From positions 3,906,001 to 3,970,000 of the forward strand of contig NC_070565.1 in the NCBI RefSeq assembly GCF_026914185.1: a stretch of 64,000 nt of DNA, in the 5' to 3' direction. The notes beneath the pieces are model-generated. The model was not told where the DNA came from and did no database searches. It saw only the letters and a list, made by a program, of their open reading frames with translations. The stretch comes from Puccinia triticina (lineage: Eukaryota > Basidiomycota > Pucciniomycetes > Pucciniales > Pucciniaceae). Below are positions 47,522-57,910 of this stretch, one piece after another. Position 1 is the stretch's first letter. Each line of letters opens with the position of its first letter. The translations under genes were made by a program, and so were the position numbers.

Positions 47522-47605
47522 CTTTTTTTTTCTAGCCCAAGACCCAGAATTTTTTCAAACCATCCCTTCAGTTTGAACATGCTTACTTGCAACAACTAAG
47601 ACTTA

Positions 47606-48487
47606 TTGTTGCAACCTAGCTATTGGGCTGGTCGCACCCAAGCTCAAATTTGGCGAGACGCCGGAAAACCGGCCAGCCACGAAATATCAGCGACAACGCT
47701 GGTTAAATGTTTATTGGCCATCAAGGCCTGGCACCTTGACCACAAGAAGCCGTACCCAAAAGAATTGGAGGGGCGAGTTGAAATCTTTGTGAAATCAGCA
47801 GCTAAAGCGGACGCCGCAGCACCTAAAAAACCAAAAAAAGAGGCAATACACCTTTCACATATGGTGTTTTTAGCCAAAGAGCTGGTAGACAGCACGCCCG
47901 AAGAGAGAGCCGTCTTGGATCTTGCTATTGTAGCATTCTGGGGGATGGCCCGACTAGCAGAACTAACATACAACACAAACAAAGGGTCGCTACAACGCTC
48001 CATGAAGTTGCTGAACTCTGATGTCTCAACCAAAGATCCAGAACATACAGTCCTCACGCTACGCAGCGCAAAGACATGCAAGCCAGGGGAAACCCAGCAG
48101 ATAAAATTGGCACGGCTACCGAATGCCTTATGCCCGTCCTGGGCAGTGCAGCGACGTCTAGACGAAGCAGGTACAACCGCAAAAACATCTCTTTTTGGTT
48201 ACAACGCGGACGGGAAACGCCACCACCTGACAAGGTCGGCGGTAATCTCAATACTCACAAGGACCTGGACCAAAGGGAGGTTCCACAAACTCTCCGGACA
48301 CTCCTTCCGAGTAGGTGGCACATCACTATGGATGGCCTTAGGGATTGACGTAGACAAAATATGCTCTCTGGGGAGGTGGAAGTCCGACTGCTACAAGCTG
48401 TACATCAGAGAATACACGCCTACCCAAATAAAAGACACCCTTGTCTTACTATCTGACCTGCAGGATAGGTGGGAAAACAGAAACTAG
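47606..48487 (+). CDS. Tyrosine recombinase (DIRS/Crypton-type), N-terminally incomplete
   Basis: The open frame from about 47598 gives 293 residues of a tyrosine recombinase that cuts and rejoins DNA without a DDE site. The first catalytic Arg is in FWGMARLAEL (about residue 115). The box II segment is KLSGHSFRVGGTSLWMALGI (His-x-x-Arg, about residue 232), followed by GRWKSDCYKLYIREY, where Trp and Tyr complete the site. The HSFRVGG...GRWKSDCYKLYIREY form is common in DIRS-like elements of basidiomycetes. No ATG is seen near the left edge and no reverse transcriptase lies upstream, so it is a 5'-truncated element or a recombinase-only (Crypton-like) one. All catalytic residues are present. 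The Gypsy element is inserted 240 bp downstream. Confidence 0.78.
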   Translation: MLQPSYWAGRTQAQIWRDAGKPASHEISATTLVKCLLAIKAWHLDHKKPYPKELEGRVEIFVKSAAKADAAAPKKPKKEAIHLSHMVFLAKELVDSTPEERAVLDLAIVAFWGMARLAELTYNTNKGSLQRSMKLLNSDVSTKDPEHTVLTLRSAKTCKPGETQQIKLARLPNALCPSWAVQRRLDEAGTTAKTSLFGYNADGKRHHLTRSAVISILTRTWTKGRFHKLSGHSFRVGGTSLWMALGIDVDKICSLGRWKSDCYKLYIREYTPTQIKDTLVLLSDLQDRWENRN

Positions 48488-49540: not shown

Positions 49541-49649
49541 TCCACCCATGACTTGCAGTCTGTCCCTAGACTGCTCGTCCAATACCGTGCCTAAAAGAAC
49601 TCCAAGTCCTAGAGAAAGAAAGGGAAACAAACCAGGGGCCTCCGCGGTG

Positions 49650-49731
49650 CTCACGAGCGTGGCATAGAGTAGGGTTTTGACGATACGCGGTAGTAACTAC
49701 CCGGGAGATGCATACTTGGAGAGGAACTTAC
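49650..49731 (-). repeat. Intron-like internal repeat, copy 3 (82 nt)
   Basis: On the minus strand it starts GTAAGTTC at 49731 and ends GTGAG at 49650. It aligns with copies at 52915-52994 and 53152-53228. The pol stop codon TAA (49730-49728) lies within its first bases. If it were spliced, pol would read on in frame (TAEAPGLFPFLSLGLGVLLG). Confidence 0.7.
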
Positions 49732-52700
49732 TTCTGGTCAAGAATGTCCTCGCGAGAATAAAACCGCTTGACCTGGTCCGCCGCAAACCGACGCTTGAGC
49801 TCGGTGCCGTCGAGTTCCTCCAATACATACGAGCCGCCGTCGACTTGCTTCACGATGCGGAAGGGCCCGTTCCATCGATGGGCAAACAACTGTCCCCACT
49901 GAGTCTCGAGGGAGCGGTTGTAAGCCAACACTTTGTCGCCCGGCTTGAGAGGTTCCCTCGCGACACCCGGCTGCTTTTCCGCCCAGTAGCGCACCGAATC
50001 CCCGCGTGAATCCATCATCCTCCTGTACGCCAATCCACGAGATTCTTCACTGCGCTCCAGCTGGCGAGAGCGCGCCACCAACAAGTCCGCCGTGGTCTTG
50101 ACCGTCTCCCAGTCGACTCCCAGGTAAGATTCGATCTCCAAATCCAACGGGAGCACCGCACGTTGCCCAAACACCAACTCATACGGTGAATAGCCCGTAG
50201 TCCGCTTAGTGGAAATGCGATCCGCAAAAAGAACTAAAGGGAGGAATTTCCTACAGTTCTTCCCGCTTTCCCCGGCCAGCTTCACCAACGCCGCCTTGAG
50301 CGGTCCATGACCCCGTTCGACCATTCCTTGACCCTCCGGATAGTACGGTGTGGACACTCTGTGCTGCCCCGGCAGCGCCCGCAGCATCTCCGCCAACGCG
50401 CCTCCGAATTCCGATCCTCCATCCGTCGAGTAAGACTGGGCCAACCCGTAGCGCATGGTCCAATGGTCCTGGAGAAAAGCCGCCACTGCCTCAGACGTAA
50501 GATTATTAAGTATCTTGGCCTCTACCCAACCCGAAAGGTCGTCACGAGCTACGATTAAATACTTAGCTCCGCCCGCTTTAAGGTGGACCACATCCATTGA
50601 GACTCGCCCAAAAACCGTAGACTCGCCAGTCGGGTACCGCAGCTCATGCGGCCTCCGCAAGTCCTTCTTCTGACAGGCCTCACAACTCTGGCACCACTTG
50701 ACCACCGCCTGCTTCAACGCTGGCCACCAAAAGCGCTCCGAAATCCGGCGATAGGTTTCCGTCGACCCCCGGTGACCCAAGTCCTCGTGCATCCTTGTCA
50801 GAATCTCCTGTTGTTTCGACGGCGCGGTGACCACTATCCTAGGCAGAGGGGTTCCCCTCTTCATCAGTCGACCAGCCTGCAGGAAAAAATCCGAAGACCG
50901 TCGCTTTAAAGCACGGAACTCCCTAGCGTCCATTCCTTCCGGCCTGTGCAGCGTAGCTAAAAACCTTTCCATCTCGAGCCAATAGCCTTCTTGATACCCA
51001 GAGTAGTCATCCTCCGCGCCCACCGTATACGAGTGTCGCGGTTTTATGTGGGGAGATTCTTCATCAAAATCCGAGGGAGGATCCGACTCATCGTCCCCTC
51101 TAGGTCGCCGAGAGAGTCCATCAGGCATTGTGAAAGACTTGCCCGGTCTATGCACAATATCAAAGGAAAACAGCTGGATGAACGCTACCCACCGCGTCAT
51201 CGGCGCGTTGGGCAGACTGGGAGCGTTGATCATCTCTATCAGCGAGTGAGCGTCGACCTGGAGCTCGAAGTGCTGGCCCCACAGTATCGTCTGCATTTTC
51301 TTGAGGATACGCGCCACACCGCACAATTCGAGTTTGGGTTGAGAATAACGTGATTCGACGTCTGAAAAAAGAAGGGATTCATAGAGAGCCGGCCGATCTA
51401 GACCGTTCGCATCTTCCTGAGTGAGAACCGCCCCTGCTGCATGAAAGCTCGAATCGACCGCCAGCTTGAGCCTGCCCGCGTCCGGCCCGTACGTGATCTT
51501 CACCAGAACAATGTCCTGGCCCACCAGGATCTTCAGCCTTTTAAACGCTTCCTCGCACTCCTCTGTCCACTCCCATTCCGAATCTTTCCTCGTCAGACGA
51601 CGTAACGGGAGGCATATCTCGGACAACTGAGGTATGAAGATCCGCACGTAGACCACCACTCCCAAGAACCCGCGCACTTCCGTAGGGTTTACAGGTGTCG
51701 GCCACGACAAGATCTTGTTCACTTTGACTTTAGACATCTTACGACCTTCCTTGCACACTACGTGCCCGACGATCTCAAGTGCCGGAACACACGCGGCCAA
51801 TTTCGACGCCGAGACGGTTAACCCAGATTCTTCAATGCGAAACAGAATCCGCTCGAGAGTGGTCGCGTACTCCCAGATAAAACGACGAATTCCGGGATGC
51901 CACGGTAGACACTCCTGATCATAGTCGGAAACGGGACCTTTTATCCCGCCATCGTCTATAAATATCCCGGCGTACTCCGGGACTTCCTCCTGCAGAATCC
52001 AAAGCATCTGCGCCTGATACACGGCCACAGAATTAGTCGCACCCTGTGGGAGTCGCGTTAACTGAAAACGACCCAATGGCGTGTCAAAGGTTGTAAGCGG
52101 TCGAGAGATAGGGTGCAGAGCGCGCTCATCATACCCGCCCATAATGTCGCCGAGCCCGTAACACGCACGCCCAGCGAAAGATTCAACAAATTCCTCCGTC
52201 GCTGGAGGCACCCCAGCATCCTTGATGGTCACCTTGTTGAGGGCCTGAAGATCATGCACCACCCGAATCTTCCCGTTGCTTTTCAAAACGCAAAACACCG
52301 GGCTCGTATAGCTCGACGTGGACTGCTCGTACAGGCCCGTTTCCACGCGTTCACGTATGACCCGGATATACTCGTCCTTTTTAGCGGCTGGGATCGGGAT
52401 TCGCCTCTTCTGCCAAGGTACGTGCTCTACCACTGGGATGATGTAGGGCAAGCCGTAAGTCTCCTTCAACAAACCCCGTTCACGTTCCGTGAAAGCTATT
52501 GAGAGATTTCTTTCCGCCAGCACGTTCTTGATAACGTTCAACTCATCCGGAGACAACCACCCCTCGGGGCCAAAGTTCACCACCTTCAGCCTTTCCTCAG
52601 TTACGCGACCCCTAGGCACAAAGGGCCCCGCCATGGATCTCGGCAACTCGCGGTAGGGATCCCTCGACAGCGGCGGTCTTCTAAGTGGCGGGTTAATCTC

Positions 52701-53705
52701 CTGCGGCATCGGCTGGTTAAGAGGCTTGATTTTCCGAGACACCGGCTTGTACTTGGCAGCGAACGCTAGAAATCCGCCCTTCGCCCAAGAGTCCAACAAC
52801 ACCAGTTGTTCGTGCCATCGCAATCCGCACTCCAGCAGAATCCGTGTTCGATGCTCGGACCGATCCTCGAAGGGTGCCTTCTCTGAATAAGAGAAACCAA
52901 ACATTTGGGGATCGCTCACGAGTGTGGCACATGATAGAGTTTCGACAACTTCGGTAGTAGATACCCTCGGAGGTGCATATTGGTCAGAACTTACTTCTGT
53001 ACCAATCTCCTCCCATGGAATCCCAAATTCCACCTTGCCCCAACCGCCTTCCAACACCAGAGAGCCTAGTTTATCCTCATTGCGGAGCGGCTTCTCGGCA
53101 AGCGCGGCCAACTTCGGACCTGGAGGGAGCCCATAACGAAATTGTCCAAGGCTCACATGTGTGGCGACGTAATGCTTTCGACAATGTAGTAGAGAGCCCT
53201 CGGAGGTGCATAACTGGGAGGAACTTACTTTCAGTTCTCCCGACCTCCGCACGATACCCATTTCTTCCTCCTCATCCGCCTCCACCCGGTCGCAACTAAA
53301 CCCGAACCCACTGAAAGCCTTAAACGGAACCGCCAGATGATGAGAGTCGAAGGGAGATTGAATAGATTGAGGAGGAACTAGAGACGGAACCGAGTCAACT
53401 TGAAGAGAGATTTTTTTAGATTTTTGACGGTTTTGTAAATGTTTTTTGAATTCTTTTGCGTGTTTTTCGGAATGAACTTGAGAAGACAAAGAGAAATAGG
53501 GCCTGTGAGTCTCTAGTTTTGCAGTTGATTCAGCGGCTAGATGTCGAGACTCTAAATTAAATCTGCCGCCTCCCGAATCAACCGAGTCTACAAAAAATGG
53601 CGACCCTCCAAAGGGTCGTCGCGAGCCTTTCCCTTGTGAGAAAGAACCGCCTTGCGCCCCTGGCCAGGAAATTCGCGCTCCCATCGGCCGGAGTCCACTG
53701 AGCAC
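49728..53705 (-). CDS. pol: Gypsy Pol: reverse transcriptase, RNase H, integrase
   Basis: The open frame spans 1325 codons. It is probably entered by -1 frameshifting near 53591 rather than at its own start. RT: RVVHDLQALNKVTIKD (about residue 483), TRLPQGATNS, and the active site FIDDGG (about 583; Asp pair in place of YxDD). RNase H: LKLAVDSSFHAAGAVLTQED (about 745). Integrase: HHCC zinc finger HEDLGHRG ... CQSCEACQ (about 975-1010), first Asp in VSMDVVHL, second in YSTDGGSEFGG, Glu in GMVERGHGPLKAAL. A GPY/F-like end, GPFRIVKQVDGGSYVLEE, and RRFAADQVKRFYSREDI finish it. No chromodomain is seen. The N-terminal 350 residues before RT contain two intron-like repeats read through in frame. Confidence 0.92.
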   Translation of the reverse strand: MLSGLRPMGARISWPGAQGGSFSQGKGSRRPFGGSPFFVDSVDSGGGRFNLESRHLAAESTAKLETHRPYFSLSSQVHSEKHAKEFKKHLQNRQKSKKISLQVDSVPSLVPPQSIQSPFDSHHLAVPFKAFSGFGFSCDRVEADEEEEMGIVRRSGELKVSSSQLCTSEGSLLHCRKHYVATHVSLGQFRYGLPPGPKLAALAEKPLRNEDKLGSLVLEGGWGKVEFGIPWEEIGTEVSSDQYAPPRVSTTEVVETLSCATLVSDPQMFGFSYSEKAPFEDRSEHRTRILLECGLRWHEQLVLLDSWAKGGFLAFAAKYKPVSRKIKPLNQPMPQEINPPLRRPPLSRDPYRELPRSMAGPFVPRGRVTEERLKVVNFGPEGWLSPDELNVIKNVLAERNLSIAFTERERGLLKETYGLPYIIPVVEHVPWQKRRIPIPAAKKDEYIRVIRERVETGLYEQSTSSYTSPVFCVLKSNGKIRVVHDLQALNKVTIKDAGVPPATEEFVESFAGRACYGLGDIMGGYDERALHPISRPLTTFDTPLGRFQLTRLPQGATNSVAVYQAQMLWILQEEVPEYAGIFIDDGGIKGPVSDYDQECLPWHPGIRRFIWEYATTLERILFRIEESGLTVSASKLAACVPALEIVGHVVCKEGRKMSKVKVNKILSWPTPVNPTEVRGFLGVVVYVRIFIPQLSEICLPLRRLTRKDSEWEWTEECEEAFKRLKILVGQDIVLVKITYGPDAGRLKLAVDSSFHAAGAVLTQEDANGLDRPALYESLLFSDVESRYSQPKLELCGVARILKKMQTILWGQHFELQVDAHSLIEMINAPSLPNAPMTRWVAFIQLFSFDIVHRPGKSFTMPDGLSRRPRGDDESDPPSDFDEESPHIKPRHSYTVGAEDDYSGYQEGYWLEMERFLATLHRPEGMDAREFRALKRRSSDFFLQAGRLMKRGTPLPRIVVTAPSKQQEILTRMHEDLGHRGSTETYRRISERFWWPALKQAVVKWCQSCEACQKKDLRRPHELRYPTGESTVFGRVSMDVVHLKAGGAKYLIVARDDLSGWVEAKILNNLTSEAVAAFLQDHWTMRYGLAQSYSTDGGSEFGGALAEMLRALPGQHRVSTPYYPEGQGMVERGHGPLKAALVKLAGESGKNCRKFLPLVLFADRISTKRTTGYSPYELVFGQRAVLPLDLEIESYLGVDWETVKTTADLLVARSRQLERSEESRGLAYRRMMDSRGDSVRYWAEKQPGVAREPLKPGDKVLAYNRSLETQWGQLFAHRWNGPFRIVKQVDGGSYVLEELDGTELKRRFAADQVKRFYSREDILDQK
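52915..52994 (-). repeat. Intron-like internal repeat, copy 2 (80 nt)
   Basis: On the minus strand it starts GTAAGTTC after GAA and ends GTGAG. It keeps ATGCACCTCCGAGGG and TCTACTACCGAAGTTGTCGA with the other copies. Here it is translated in frame as VSSDQYAPPRVSTTEVVETL. Confidence 0.75.
53152..53228 (-). repeat. Intron-like internal repeat, copy 1 (77 nt)
   Basis: On the minus strand it starts GTAAGTTCC after AAA and ends GTGAG. It shares ATGCACCTCCGAGGG and a CTACTAC-GTCGAAA core with copies 2 and 3. Read through, it encodes VSSSQLCTSEGSLLHCRKHY. Its length is not a multiple of three, so splicing it alone would shift pol out of frame. Confidence 0.75.
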
Positions 53706-55723
53706 AAAGAGACCTCGATCTTGCGGCCCGTTGAGTCCGGCAACAGAATACGTTCGCCTACTTGGTTATCGAAATTCAGCGTCGCGTTGAAGTCCATGAG
53801 AAAAGGCCTGCCGAAAATGAGCGGCCCATCCATACGCGTAATCCAGAAATGACAGGTGCCAACAATGGTCTTCCCTACTCGGATCGGGACATCCTCCGCG
53901 ACGCCGACAAGCTCACACGCCTGGTTCCCGATGCCATAAACGGCGGAGCTAAAATTTACACGTGGGCTAATATTGAATTTGTTAGCCATCGTGTCTGAAA
54001 TCAAATTCAATTGAGATCCCGAGTCAATGAGAGGAAGGGCGTTACTCTCCTCGTCGCCGACCAGACACGGCATATGACCCAACGGGCATGAATAGAGCTT
54101 CATGCCGTCAATCCTGCCTTCGCCCTCCGAGTCCTCCGCCAATGTCCCTGACGCGACCCTCATCTCTTCAGCTCCAACCTCCACACGCCGCCTTGAAACC
54201 CACTTCTTCATGCCTTCGGAAACCGAGGGAGAAATAGCCAAAATTTCCGAAACCGTGACGTTAGGAACTGGCAAGTCGAACATTTTCCGCAATACACCGT
54301 CCACTGCCTGCGGATGATCTCTAGCCACTCCTCGCTCAAATCTGACCTTAGGAGTGGGGGAGTTTGGCTTGGGAACTTCCGTCGCAACCGGGTCATCCTT
54401 CGAAGCATCGTCGTTGGCAGCGAGGGGCTGTCCTCGCTCGAATAGCTCTGGTTCCGCTCCCATCTCCTCGGTATCTGAGCCGGATTTGGGTGTACCAATG
54501 GACTTCTTCCTCGGCGGTCGCTGAGCTGCCGAGGGCGGAACTATCGGAGCCTTATAGGGCTTAGAAGCCTCATGCTTCTTCCGAGCTGGATCCGCCTGAT
54601 AAACACCCGTGAAAGACTGCGAAGTAATCGAAGGCGGTCTCCACGGCTCAAGCGAACCGCACGTGGTCCTGAACTCGGACTCAGCAGCCGTCGCTGCAGA
54701 CGTCTTCGGCTGGTAGGACGCCACCACGTGACGGATAGGACGAGAGTTGTCCACTGGAATCAGCGCCCCGTTTGGTAAGAAGAAACTACCTCCTCGCTGC
54801 TCCACCAGTTTTTCATCCTTGTCCTTCTGCAGCTCCGCGCATCGTCCCAGCCCGTGACCCTCTCTGTGGCAATAGTAGCACACCATAGGTCCCCGCGGCG
54901 TCGTCGGCCGAGCCTGTGCTGAAAACTTCTTCTCCAAGCGCTGTTCGAAGGACTGTAACATTCGCTCTATCTCGTCCACTGTCGCAGGGGCCCGCGTCTG
55001 TGTAGGAGCTTCTCGGGGGCGACGGTCCGATTCCATCTTCTGCATAACGTCGTTGGATTGCTTGAAGACTTCAGCAGGCACCGGAACGTCCGCACGAGAA
55101 CCTTCAAAGGTAAGCGCCGTCTGATTCTTCATCACTTCTTCTACCGCCTTCTTCAGAATCTCGAAGGTGGGGAGCTTGAATCTATTATCCTGAGTTGTGA
55201 TCATAGTCTTATCCTTGATCAACTGATCACGGATGCGCTCCTGAAGGCCCAATGAAAAAGACTGATAGTACAACCTCTTAATTTCCTCGACGGAATCGAT
55301 GTGGTCCTTCCGCAACAGGTAGGACTGGATTGGCTGCCACGACTTGCGGAAGTCCTGAAAATCCACTACCGATCGAACGCCACCTTTGTCCTTCCACCCT
55401 TGCACCAAATCCTCCAGATCTCTAGTCGTAAAACGCGCGGTGTCGATCTTGCCCCAATGGGAGAGCATCGCCGCTTTGAGCAGAGTCCAGTTGGGAGGGT
55501 CGAATCCGTCTAGCGTCTCGACTACATCCTTCACCTCTGCCGTGCGGATGAAAAACCGGACTTGCTGAGCCATGTCCATCTCGGAGGCACCATCTAGACG
55601 TGCCGCTAGCTGATAGTCGGCCAAAAAGCGCTCCACGTTGGAGCCATCAAAGCCCAAAGACTTATCTTGCGGCTTGATCTTCACCATCCGCGCTACCTGT
55701 TCAGCGCCAACAGGTTCTGCCAT
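53588..55723 (-). CDS. gag: Gypsy Gag-protease polyprotein
   Basis: 711 codons from ATG 55723-55721. The N-terminal part is a retrotransposon Gag (KPQDKSLGFDGSNVERFLAD, LVQGWKDKGGVRSVVDFQDF, IQSYLLRK). A CCHC knuckle follows at about residue 281-294 (CYYCHREGHGLGRC). A Pro/Ser/acidic linker follows, then an aspartic protease with PLIDSGSQLNLISD (Asp-Ser-Gly, about residue 565) and WITRMDGPLIFGRPFL. The frame ends at TAG 53590-53588, directly behind the heptamer T TTT TTG, and pol lies in the -1 frame. It overlaps the pol frame by 118 bases. Gag packages the RNA; the protease cleaves the polyprotein. Confidence 0.92.
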   Translation of the reverse strand: MAEPVGAEQVARMVKIKPQDKSLGFDGSNVERFLADYQLAARLDGASEMDMAQQVRFFIRTAEVKDVVETLDGFDPPNWTLLKAAMLSHWGKIDTARFTTRDLEDLVQGWKDKGGVRSVVDFQDFRKSWQPIQSYLLRKDHIDSVEEIKRLYYQSFSLGLQERIRDQLIKDKTMITTQDNRFKLPTFEILKKAVEEVMKNQTALTFEGSRADVPVPAEVFKQSNDVMQKMESDRRPREAPTQTRAPATVDEIERMLQSFEQRLEKKFSAQARPTTPRGPMVCYYCHREGHGLGRCAELQKDKDEKLVEQRGGSFFLPNGALIPVDNSRPIRHVVASYQPKTSAATAAESEFRTTCGSLEPWRPPSITSQSFTGVYQADPARKKHEASKPYKAPIVPPSAAQRPPRKKSIGTPKSGSDTEEMGAEPELFERGQPLAANDDASKDDPVATEVPKPNSPTPKVRFERGVARDHPQAVDGVLRKMFDLPVPNVTVSEILAISPSVSEGMKKWVSRRRVEVGAEEMRVASGTLAEDSEGEGRIDGMKLYSCPLGHMPCLVGDEESNALPLIDSGSQLNLISDTMANKFNISPRVNFSSAVYGIGNQACELVGVAEDVPIRVGKTIVGTCHFWITRMDGPLIFGRPFLMDFNATLNFDNQVGERILLPDSTGRKIEVSLCSVDSGRWEREFPGQGRKAVLSHKGKARDDPLEGRHFL
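53591..53597 (-). promoter_or_regulatory. Slippery heptamer for -1 ribosomal frameshifting
   Basis: On the minus strand T TTT TTG sits in the gag frame as ...CAT TTT TTG TAG. It fits X XXY YYZ and abuts the stop. Slippage by -1 gives TTT TTT GTA GAC, exactly the pol frame. AGACTC just downstream can pair with GAGTCT about 35 nt later, a possible stimulatory stem. Confidence 0.75.
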
Positions 55724-55842
55724 CACGACGGCCTAATTTTAGTCTCCTGTGCCTCCGCCGCTGAACCCAAAGAAATAACAAAATAACACCTAAAAAAAAG
55801 AAAACAAAGACCGCCAAGCGTCTCGAGACCGTCCAAATCGCC

Positions 55843-55891
55843 GAGACTGTAAATCTTGAGGTCGCTGGTTCGATCCCGGCTCGGGGGACCA
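55843..55891 (-). promoter_or_regulatory. Extended primer-binding site complementary to tRNA-Tyr 3' half
   Basis: The plus strand reads as the 3' half of tRNA-Tyr: anticodon stem CGAGA, loop CTGTAAA (anticodon GTA), stem TCTTG, T-arm GCTGG-TTCGATC-CCGGC, acceptor TCGGGGGA and CCA (55889-55891). Only AA separates it from the LTR. On the element's strand it starts TGGTCCCCCGAGCCGGG, a typical PBS, but complementarity extends for 49 nt. Confidence 0.85.
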
Positions 55892-55893
55892 AA

Positions 55894-56707
55894 TGAGGAA
55901 CTCTGGCCGGTGCTAGGCCGGCAGCAGTTCGGGGAGGGGAAAAAGAAAAGCTGAGATTTATCTACGTATGCCCTCCGGGATGATTGGCCGAAAAAGAGCG
56001 CTGAGATTCGTGTAAGCGTGAAGGGGGTTTGATTTTACGACGGCGGGAGATGCGCGTCGGCGGGTTTGTTTTGAGAGAGGCCGGGATACTGCCGGCAGGA
56101 GTGAGAGGTGTGATCTAAACCAGGAAGGTGGAGGAGATCGACGTTTTGCGGGGTAAAGAACTTAAAAGCCGTGAGATTCGGGCAAACAAATGCCAAGACG
56201 TGAACTTTGAACTTTGATGGATTGACTGAAAACTATATCGTTCAGAGTGGGTCCATGCCGCTCCAAAGCCTGAGTTCAAACTGAACTCAAACCTTGGAGT
56301 TGGTGACATGTAGCAGACATCTCATCACAACCTAGCGCGCACGCGCGCGCAACAACAACATAAGACAAAGACAGAAACAAAACAAAACAAAACAGAAACA
56401 AAACAAACCAACCCTCCTCATACAAAACCTATCCAACGCGCGCAATGCGAAAGAGGAAATAACAAAACATGATGAAAGATAAACTTAAAAGAAAACAGGA
56501 CCAAGAAAGCCAAAACACAAGGAAGAGGGGGGGGGGAAAGAAGACCTGAAACGCCTTGAGGATGCGCGCCACGCCGCGCCGTTGAACTTGAGGAGGCCTC
56601 AAGGGCTGAAAGCTGAATCTTGATGTCTTGAGTCTTGACGTCCTCTGGCGCGCGCCGTGCGCGGCAAAAAGCTTGATTCCTCCGCGTGTACCAGATTGTC
56701 CACCACA
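55894..56707 (-). repeat. 5' LTR of the Gypsy element
   Basis: 814 bp, the same length as the other LTR and visually identical to it. It carries the element's promoter (U3 towards 56707). The open frames seen in both LTRs are copies of each other and have no domain. Confidence 0.93.
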
Positions 56708-57304: not shown

Positions 57305-57910
57305 TCAACCATTTCTTCCAAATTGGTTGTCTGCAAAACCAAGATTCTTCTCACCAACAAGAATTACGCCCTCTGGCTTCTCCCAATCAAAGCAAAACTT
57401 CACAAACTCAAGTACCTCAACATAGTCAACAATACTGTTGCCATTCCCAATCCCAAGAAGGACAAGCACAACTTCAAGTTATACGTCAAGTACAACGAAG
57501 ACGCTTATGCAGAAATCATTCAACTCCTCAGTCAAGAGGTTCTTGCTTATGTCAGCTCATCTTTACCGGATGCCAACAAATTCAACGGACAAAAACTGTG
57601 GTCGCTCCTCAAGTCCAAGTATGCAGGGGACGACCTCACCGCCAAGACCACTGCTCTCAAACAGTTCCTAGCAGTTGATTACAACAACTTACTTGCATTT
57701 ATGCCATTGATCCGATTGGCCAATCAGAAGATCAACCTTTCCCGACACGTCCTTGATGATCAGGTCCGTACCATCTTGATGCTTGACAAGCTGCCTCAAG
57801 AGTTCCACACCTTAAAGACCAATATCTTGATGAACTTTGAAACAATCCCGTTTGACCAAGTCCTCAAGAAGTTAGAAGATTTTGCCGCTCAAAATCAGCT
57901 CAACAATTAA
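57305..57910 (+). pseudogene. Copia-type Gag fragment (UBN2-like), start missing
   Basis: The open frame after a stop at 57302-57304 lacks an ATG. It encodes LLTNKNYALWLLPIKAKLHK (the N-terminal Copia Gag NYxxW motif), VSSSLPDANKFNGQKLWSLL, KTTALKQFLAVDYNNLLAFM, LRLANQ-like IRLANQKINLSRHVLDDQVR, and TILMLDKLPQEFHTLKTNIL. This is the gag-polypeptide/UBN2 domain of Ty1/Copia elements. The frame stops at 57910 without a zinc knuckle, protease or pol, so the element is incomplete. Confidence 0.75.

What the first reader, a model, noticed from the sequence alone, without database searches (positions are those of the whole stretch)
49650..53228. Three dispersed intron-like 80-nt repeats inside one Gypsy element
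At 53228-53152, 52994-52915 and 49731-49650 (minus strand) the element carries homologous segments of 77, 80 and 82 nt. All start GTAAGTTC, a near-consensus 5' splice site, and all end GTGAG. They share ATGCACCTCCGAGGG-like and CTACTAC cores. Introns are rare in LTR elements because the genomic RNA would lose them, and similarity between introns of one gene is the hallmark of introner-type spread. Copies 1 and 2 lie before RT and are read through in frame; copy 3 carries the pol stop. Alternatives are an RNA structural signal or alternative splicing to make sub-genomic RNA. Splicing copy 1 or 2 alone would shift the pol frame, which argues against simple constitutive introns.
Basis: partly seen in the sequence, partly recalled or inferred. 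Interest (0 to 1): 0.8.

Follow-up and report, generated by a model that had tools for sequence, protein, structure and literature searches.

The report
Hairpin-guarded introns in a rust retrotransposon
A jumping gene in a rust fungus carries several related introns that can be cut out of its RNA but are mostly kept in the copies that are passed on, which suggests that it uses splicing as a switch instead of losing its introns as such elements should.

Summary
The three segments are real and are introns. They are one homologous family, 3-5 per element in loci spanning most of an element, in a Ty3/gypsy lineage of a Puccinia-like genome: before the gag ATG, between protease and RT, and at the pol stop. 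Splicing is indicated by exact GT-AG intron-loss copies of all three classes: a C13 copy, 99.9-100% identical to the window element where compared, has a 108-nt leader intron that the window lacks; L021 lacks an internal one; L041/L042 lack the terminal one. Each kept other copies, so splicing is partial. The retained form looks translated: internal segments keep frame in 34 of 34 distinct copies; leader introns contain no ATG (0 of 17). Removing an internal intron shifts RT out of frame. Nucleotides, not amino acids, are conserved, and most donors lie in a covarying exon-intron hairpin. Inferred mechanism: hairpin-limited splicing separates a Pol-less pool from an intron-retaining pool used as Gag-Pol message and genome. 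No RNA data were available. Introner spread is not supported.

The parts
55894..56707 (-). 5' LTR (814 bp, 100% identical to the 3' LTR; TG..CA ends)
53591..55732 (-). gag-protease ORF (714 aa, stop to stop), with a CX2CX4HX4C zinc knuckle and a DSG protease motif (motifs recognised by eye)
   Evidence: no Pfam hit at E <= 0.001
55736..55737 (-). Exact site of the lost 5'-leader intron: exon ends ..GGAGGCACAGGAGACTAAAA (55737), next exon starts TTAGGCC (55736). The C13 copy has a 108-nt GTAAGT..TTCAG intron here
53591..53597 (-). Probable -1 frameshift heptamer T_TTT_TTG directly before the gag stop TAG
   Evidence: function inferred
49728..53765 (-). pol ORF (1345 aa, stop to stop) with RT, RNase H and H2C2 integrase; reads through introns 1 and 2 and ends in the donor of the terminal intron
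53120..53228 (-).
52883..52994 (-).
49609..49731 (-).
53198..53254 (-). Donor hairpin of intron 1: about 26 nt of exon paired with about 31 nt of intron, GT of the donor in or beside the loop
   Evidence: predicted fold; shown on the matching C13 copy L001
52964..53020 (-). Donor hairpin of intron 2, same architecture with different, compensated bases
   Evidence: predicted fold; shown on the matching C13 copy L001
48727..49540 (-). 3' LTR

Best explanation
These are spliceosomal introns of one homologous family, carried 3-5 times per element by a Ty3/gypsy lineage of a rust fungus. SHOWN from DNA: copies exist from which a 5', an internal or a terminal member is missing exactly from GT to AG, as expected if spliced RNA was reverse transcribed; such copies kept other members, so removal was partial. 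The nucleotide sequence, the acceptor and, in most copies, a donor hairpin are conserved, and the intron-retaining sequence keeps the pol frame open and the gag leader free of ATG. INFERRED: the exon-intron hairpin around the donor slows U1 recognition, so that only part of the transcripts splice. RNA with an internal intron removed has RT out of frame and can give only Gag-protease. Unspliced RNA is the Gag-Pol message (through a -1 frameshift site) and the packaged genome. Introns persist because copies made from internally spliced RNA lose the pol frame, and because splicing itself may help expression in a host whose genes depend on introns.
For: (1) Window and C13 copies match at 99.9-100% over the stretches compared, except for one uniquely placed 108-nt GTAAGT..CAG insert in the 5' leader; the window copy kept its other three. 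(2) The exact terminal junction occurs in L041/L042, matching the window on both sides. (3) L021 has an exact internal junction: the exon after it starts 25 nt before YCTCCGC, as in the six relatives shown, and L021 kept its 5', last internal and terminal copies. (4) YAG at 25-49 nt after GTGAG in 62 of 64 distinct copies, with 0.79 pyrimidine before it against 0.51 in RT sequence. (5) Diversity by codon position is 0.30/0.22/0.24 in the last internal segment (13 copies of one subtype) against 0.12/0.05/0.59 in RT (9 of these). (6) The acceptor NCA|G is the same in 17 of 17 last internal copies, at a synonymous site. (7) Segment length 2 mod 3 in 34 of 34 internal copies, against 11 of 29 of the 5' and terminal copies; ATG inside 0 of 17 5' introns where shuffling expects 12.1. 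(8) Donor hairpin: mean MFE -18.5 against -12.5 for RT windows; total cognate pairing better than in all 5000 swaps within class. (9) Read-through internal segments also occur in a Puccinia coronata protein (3 copies, by eye) and two unnamed proteins (2 and 1).
Against: No RNA data were available, so the splicing rate and the two RNA pools are not measured. Intron-loss copies are few: 1 for the 5' site, 1 internal, and 1 terminal pattern seen at 2 neighbouring places. A pattern for spliced copies of the last internal intron found none at up to 1 mismatch and 18 at exactly 2 (controls 5+2; 6 of the 18 read ACAG and are unspliced), against 253 unspliced at up to 2 (controls 0+0), so that intron may rarely be spliced in packaged RNA. 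L021 has no near-identical filled partner among the loci read. After in-silico removal of the last internal intron the shifted frame stays open for at least 150 nt in L011, L015, L017-L019, L027 and L028, so an early stop is not general, although RT is out of frame. The donor GTAAGT is strong, so repression by the hairpin is an assumption. Hairpin z-scores are modest (mean -1.88; below -1.5 in 39 of 64), 8.7% of RT windows fold at least as well as the mean donor, and in the largest class cognate and swapped pairing differ little (-21.9 against -21.1). Copies are related, so permutation counts and Fisher values are not true probabilities. In the second, 4-copy subtype the codon-position pattern looks coding-like (0.08/0.04/0.19). 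A frameshift site already gives excess Gag, which makes a second Gag device less necessary.
Confidence: 0.75

Rival explanations
1. The repeats are primarily a cis-acting RNA signal (packaging, dimerisation or export), used several times per genome, for example bound by the Gag zinc knuckle. Splicing at them is a by-product of donor-like and acceptor-like sequence.
For: Nearly invariant stretches inside the intron that splicing does not need (TGCACCTCC, GCCAC, GTGAG), a covarying hairpin, several copies per element, and copies in untranslated as well as translated parts.
Against: The pyrimidine tract and YAG are kept while the bases between GTGAG and YAG vary, the acceptor is held at a synonymous site in 17 of 17, and three positional classes show exact GT-AG removal.
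Confidence: 0.15
2. Introner-type mobile introns that are spreading through the genome and happened to hit this element.
For: Several similar introns in one transcript unit; 106+128 pattern hits in the genome, controls 0+0. One of 18 isolated copies (L059) has no upstream match and only a 27-nt downstream match to the elements read.
Against: Copies sit at recurring positions and group by position. All 18 isolated copies sampled have element-like sequence downstream, 12 of 18 also upstream. Four sister-family elements examined in the same genome lack them at the ends read, and their protein alignments leave no room for internal ones.
Confidence: 0.04
3. Ordinary repeated coding sequence: a peptide repeat in the pol linker, with chance resemblance to introns.
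For: Internal copies are open and in frame in most loci, and are kept in the P. coronata protein model; the small 4-copy subtype varies mostly at third positions.
Against: In the 13-copy subtype the codon-position pattern is not that of coding sequence; one nucleotide motif is read in two frames (C-T-S and A-P-P); homologous copies lie in the 5' leader and at the pol stop; exact GT-AG losses exist.
Confidence: 0.02
4. Real introns but neutral baggage: efficiently spliced in mRNA, kept because genomic RNA escapes splicing by chance, with no regulatory role.
For: Exact losses occur, and at least one intron-lacking copy (the window, identical LTRs) is a young insertion.
Against: Hairpin covariation, conserved intron body, frame keeping and ATG avoidance point to selection on the retained state. 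If splicing of the internal introns were efficient, Pol could hardly be made.
Confidence: 0.12

Closest known systems
BARE1 alternative intron (barley Ty1/copia; PMC3735527, passages seen)
   Same: A short (104-nt) facultative intron inside the polyprotein ORF whose splicing shifts the frame, so spliced RNA can make only Gag; the paper argues for separate translated and replicated RNA pools.
   Different: BARE1 has one such intron, in gag; no donor hairpin is mentioned in the passages seen. Here there are 3-5 homologous introns per element, including leader and terminal ones, in Ty3/gypsy, with a probable frameshift site as well.
Ogre intron between gag-protease and RT (plant Ty3/gypsy; known here only from a passage in PMC6317226)
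   Same: Partial splicing of an intron between protease and RT in a Ty3/gypsy element.
   Different: In Ogre splicing allows translation of the entire polyprotein; here splicing breaks pol and the unspliced RNA is the coding one.
Drosophila copia sub-genomic Gag RNA (as cited in a passage of PMC3735527)
   Same: Splicing produces an RNA for Gag only.
   Different: One large 2950-nt intron removes nearly all of pol; a single intron, not a repeated family.
Introners (PMC9860276; main text searched for terms: Puccinia, Basidiomycot, rust and LTR 0 times each)
   Same: Similar introns in several places.
   Different: Here confined, as far as sampled, to fixed positions of one retrotransposon lineage.
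Yeast ribosomal protein introns autoregulated by intron structure (PMC12311795, PMC13232506; starts of abstracts in a search listing only)
   Same: Intron structure takes part in control of splicing by a protein.
   Different: No binding protein is shown here; the hairpin spans exon and intron.

Membership tests
Ty3/gypsy LTR retrotransposon | RT, RNase H and integrase in pol, RT before integrase | tested here: met
   Pfam RVT_1 (494-668), RT_RNaseH (766-865) and Integrase_H2C2 (983-1034) in that order
Ty3/gypsy LTR retrotransposon | Paired LTRs with TG..CA ends and target-site duplication | tested here: met
   814-bp LTRs, 100% identical, with CCGT on both outer sides
Spliceosomal (U2-type) intron | GT donor, AG acceptor, polypyrimidine tract | tested here: met
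   YAG in 62 of 64 distinct copies (copies were picked by donor motif, so the donor itself is not counted)
Spliceosomal (U2-type) intron | Exact removal from RNA | tested here: met
   Indirect: exact GT-AG losses in DNA at 5', internal and terminal positions; no RNA-seq
Spliceosomal (U2-type) intron | Branch point | not tested
   TAC and GTGAG motifs are conserved, but neither was assigned
Introner | Copies at many unrelated host-gene positions | tested here: inconclusive
   18 isolated copies sampled out of 234 pattern hits, all with element-like downstream flank, one of them only 27 nt; no host-gene copy seen, but most copies were not read
Introner | Recent spread, copies similar irrespective of position | tested here: not met
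   nearest neighbour in the same positional class for 56 of 61, or 52 of 61 when closer than 8% is passed over (some class labels wrong)
BARE1-type facultative intron | Splicing shifts the frame and abolishes Pol | tested here: met
   Window: stop after 17 codons (intron 1) and 38 codons (intron 2) beyond the junction; 31 of 34 internal introns are 1 mod 3; in some other elements the shifted frame is open for 150 nt but RT is out of frame
BARE1-type facultative intron | Spliced and unspliced RNAs coexist | not testable with these tools
   no RNA data; partial splicing inferred from mixed copies
Ogre-type intron | Splicing restores one gag-pol frame | tested here: not met
   In the window the gag stop lies upstream of intron 1, and removing intron 1 or 2 breaks the open frame

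The most novel reading that the evidence does not exclude
The unit is a portable retention cassette: an exon-intron hairpin plus a conserved intron body bound by the element's own Gag (zinc knuckle), which blocks splicing and marks unspliced RNA for packaging. That would be a Rev/RRE-like or RPL30-like (comparison recalled) autoregulated splicing switch in a fungal retrotransposon, reused 3-5 times along one genome, so that any spliced RNA is kept out of the particle.
Probability: 0.25. Interest if true: 0.9.

Novelty: new variant of a known kind. Interest (0 to 1): 0.78.

Why it matters
LTR retrotransposons copy themselves through RNA and should lose any intron. A lineage that keeps three to five homologous introns, shows their occasional loss, and keeps both the unspliced reading frame and a donor hairpin makes it testable how a retroelement separates translated, spliced and packaged RNA. 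It would be a case of retrovirus-like splicing control in a fungus. Practically, annotation pipelines could treat such segments as plain coding sequence or cut them out wrongly.

Tried and rejected
Rfam: in 49-57 kb no family matches the segments; two weak sub-threshold hits lie near 55.8 kb. Folding the three 77-82-nt segments alone gave nothing better than shuffles (z +0.3 to +0.8); structure appears only when the upstream exon is included. Splicing as a way to fuse gag to pol was tested and rejected for the window: the gag stop lies upstream of the first internal copy and the reading is broken after splicing. An internal start for a pol-only RNA was considered by eye only and not supported. 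A pattern for 5'-site losses was sent four times and never answered, so the number of such losses in the genome is unknown. Copies in host genes could not be searched exhaustively, because genome searches list only the first or best places. Of 97 regions planned from the searches, 20 were read in full (all on C1-C3), so the sample is biased to close copies and three contigs. The 64 'distinct copies' were picked by donor, TGCA and GTGAG motifs, so copies with broken motifs were left out. Class labels set by rule are partly wrong; the class counts used are, where 5' and terminal copies were listed by hand, one copy (L041+601) was left out, and the remaining 34 were called internal.

No title or start of abstract listed describes these introns, but the library lacks most subscription papers. 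The Ogre paper itself is not held.
Full report
WHAT IS THERE. The window is part of an 18-contig, 122.8-Mb genome. The best protein relative of the searched part of pol is from Puccinia coronata (57% identity over 87%), and P. striiformis is also among the 12 hits, so this is a Puccinia-like rust; the species is not given. On the minus strand lies a young Ty3/gypsy element: LTRs at 56707-55894 and 49540-48727 (814 bp, 100% identical, CCGT on both outer sides), a gag-protease ORF and a pol ORF with RT, RNase H and integrase zinc-binding domains.

Aligning 69 copies from 20 fetched loci and the window (61 unique) shows conservation from about 20 nt before GTAAGT to GTGAG, then a poorly conserved pyrimidine-rich stretch and a YAG. 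Of 64 distinct copies (from 91, picked by donor, TGCA and GTGAG motifs), 62 have a YAG 25-49 nt after GTGAG, with 0.79 pyrimidine in the 20 nt before it, against 0.51 before YAGs in RT sequence; 46% of random RT windows also have a YAG at that distance. The window introns are therefore 53228-53120, 52994-52883 and 49731-49609 (109, 112 and 123 nt).

THE FAMILY. Genome searches with each segment returned the maximum of 40 scored places. A 29-nt core pattern with up to 2 mismatches gave 106+128 places, with 0+0 for the reversed control. In loci that span most of an element there are 3-5 copies: one just before the gag ATG, 1-3 between protease and RT, one at the pol stop; shorter or cut loci show fewer. 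Copies group by position (56 of 61 nearest neighbours in the same class, 52 of 61 when neighbours closer than 8% are passed over; some labels wrong). Of 18 isolated copies sampled, all have element-like sequence downstream (L059 by 27 nt only) and 12 also upstream. Sister families found with a P. striiformis protein (32 matches listed) align with lengths that leave no room for internal copies in the full-length matches. In four 5' pieces and two 3' pieces of four such elements there is no GTAAGT and no copy, apart from one 24-nt match at E 0.006. So the introns look like a derived feature of this lineage. Read-through internal copies are visible by eye in the P. coronata protein (three) and in two unnamed proteins (two and one).

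DNA EVIDENCE OF SPLICING. (a) 5' leader: a C13 copy matches the window element at 99.9-100% over the stretches compared but has a 108-nt insert GTAAGT..CTTCAG before the gag ATG. Only one placement reproduces the window sequence exactly, and it is GT-AG. The window copy kept its three other introns. (b) Terminal: two neighbouring places on C3 have TTGACCAGAA joined to GACTTGGAG, matching the window on both sides with its 123-nt intron missing. They look like one event in a repeated, non-autonomous derivative, which has further copies of the family nearby. (c) Internal: L021 has the exon end joined to an exon start that lies 25 nt before YCTCCGC, as in the six relatives shown, and kept its 5', last internal and terminal copies. 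A spliced RNA was thus probably reverse transcribed at least once for each class, and each time only part of the introns was removed. A fourth unfilled site in the scan, L032, is a mutated donor, not a loss; 82 sites in the loci were filled, duplicates included. For the last internal intron no spliced copy was found at up to 1 mismatch, and 18 at exactly 2 with controls of 5+2, against 253 unspliced with controls of 0+0.

THE RETAINED FORM LOOKS USED. Internal segments have length 2 mod 3 in 34 of 34 distinct copies, and 31 of 34 internal introns have length 1 mod 3; the 5' and terminal copies show no such rule (segment length 2 mod 3 in 11 of 29). 5' introns contain no ATG in 17 of 17 (12.1 with ATG expected by shuffling), while 34 of 34 internal and 10 of 12 terminal ones contain one. 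In the window, splicing intron 1 or 2 leads to a stop 17 or 38 codons beyond the junction. In L011, L015, L017-L019, L027 and L028 the shifted frame after the last internal intron stays open for at least 150 nt, but RT is out of frame. All 12 terminal copies put a stop codon in the donor (K then TAA), with the 100 codons before it open in 10 of 12; in the window splicing there would add 13 residues. Gag ends in T TTT TTR followed by a stop in the window and the six other elements printed (7 of 7), and the next pol frame is -1 in the elements where both ORFs are seen, except L016, so -1 frameshifting is likely (inference).

SELECTION IS ON NUCLEOTIDES. In the last internal copy (13 copies of one subtype) diversity at codon positions 1, 2 and 3 is 0.30, 0.22 and 0.24; in RT of 9 of these it is 0.12, 0.05 and 0.59. 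In the 4 copies of the other subtype the values are 0.08, 0.04 and 0.19, which by itself would look coding-like. The motif TGCACCTCC is read as C-T-S in one subtype and as A-P-P in the other. The acceptor is NCA|G in 17 of 17. Several of these copies are close relatives.

THE DONOR HAIRPIN. The 57 nt around the donor fold to a mean of -18.5 kcal/mol, against -12.5 for RT windows of the same length; 8.7% of the RT windows reach that mean, and the z-score against shuffles is below -1.5 in 39 of 64. In most predicted folds about 20 nt of exon pair with intron bases from about +5 to +28, with the donor GT in or near the loop; a few copies fold weakly, such as L005. Cognate exon and intron arms pair better than swapped ones (observed -1264, swaps -1141, SD 17.7; 0 of 5000), also when swapped only within rule-based classes (mean -1196, SD 14.0; 0 of 5000); the gain is largest in one internal subtype (-19.6 against -17.3) and small in the largest class (-21.9 against -21.1). 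Related copies make these counts optimistic. The rest of the conserved segment is poorly structured.

MECHANISM. The hairpin probably limits donor use, giving two RNA pools. The unspliced RNA codes for Gag and, by frameshift, Gag-Pol, and is the usual template. RNA with an internal intron removed can make only Gag-protease. Copies from internally spliced RNA lose the pol frame, which would keep the introns in active lineages. Introns may also help expression: in the basidiomycete Cryptococcus neoformans removal of introns greatly lowers mRNA for most tested genes (PMC3744415, abstract and outline seen). Whether Gag binds the hairpin is open. BARE1 of barley is the closest precedent for a frame-breaking facultative intron (PMC3735527, passages); Ogre is the precedent for an intron between protease and RT, with the opposite coding effect (passage in PMC6317226). 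No description of this intron family was found in the listings of ten searches.

VERDICT. Introns: close to certain from DNA. Partial splicing: well supported. Hairpin-controlled RNA pools: likely but untested. Introner spread: not supported, though most copies were not read.

Noticed in passing
window 55891-55815 (minus strand): Directly after the 5' LTR the primer-binding region is complementary not to about 18 nt but to nearly a whole tRNA (looks like tRNA-Tyr, anticodon GTA, by eye). The Rfam tRNA hit at 55820-55888 on the plus strand is below gathering (19.8 bits) and ARAGORN calls none. The same stretch is seen in other elements of the lineage. In the four 5' pieces of sister elements a short tRNA-like motif matched once only, inside gag.
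   Followed up: partly
window 53597-53591 (minus strand): T TTT TTG heptamer directly before the gag stop; T TTT TTA in L022, L025 and L027. Probable -1 frameshift site.
   Followed up: partly
window about 53090-53060; L021 2870-3150: The linker between protease and RT holds short repeats like CTCCGCRAYGAG..AAACTA, repeated in L021, with unknown role.
   Followed up: no
L041, L042 (C3:1517990-1521019 and 1521688-1524717): Repeated, apparently non-autonomous derivative with a 3.7-kb spacing, with the terminal intron lost and a 5' intron kept after the LTR.
   Followed up: partly
L017, L018, L019 (C1:4.15-4.32 Mb): Three copies, identical in the stretches aligned, spaced about 77.4 kb apart, suggesting a large tandem duplication.
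   Followed up: no
L020 about 2070-2850 (element strand): L020 has about 780 nt extra compared with L027, starting about 90 nt into its first internal intron.
   Followed up: no
L032 1552: 5' copy with a mutated donor (TTAAGT) that has also lost the TGCACCTCC motif.
   Followed up: no
window 57305-57910 (plus): Copia-type gag (Pfam PF14223).
   Followed up: no
window 47600-48487 (plus): 295-aa ORF that looks like a tyrosine recombinase by eye; no Pfam match at E <= 0.01.
   Followed up: no
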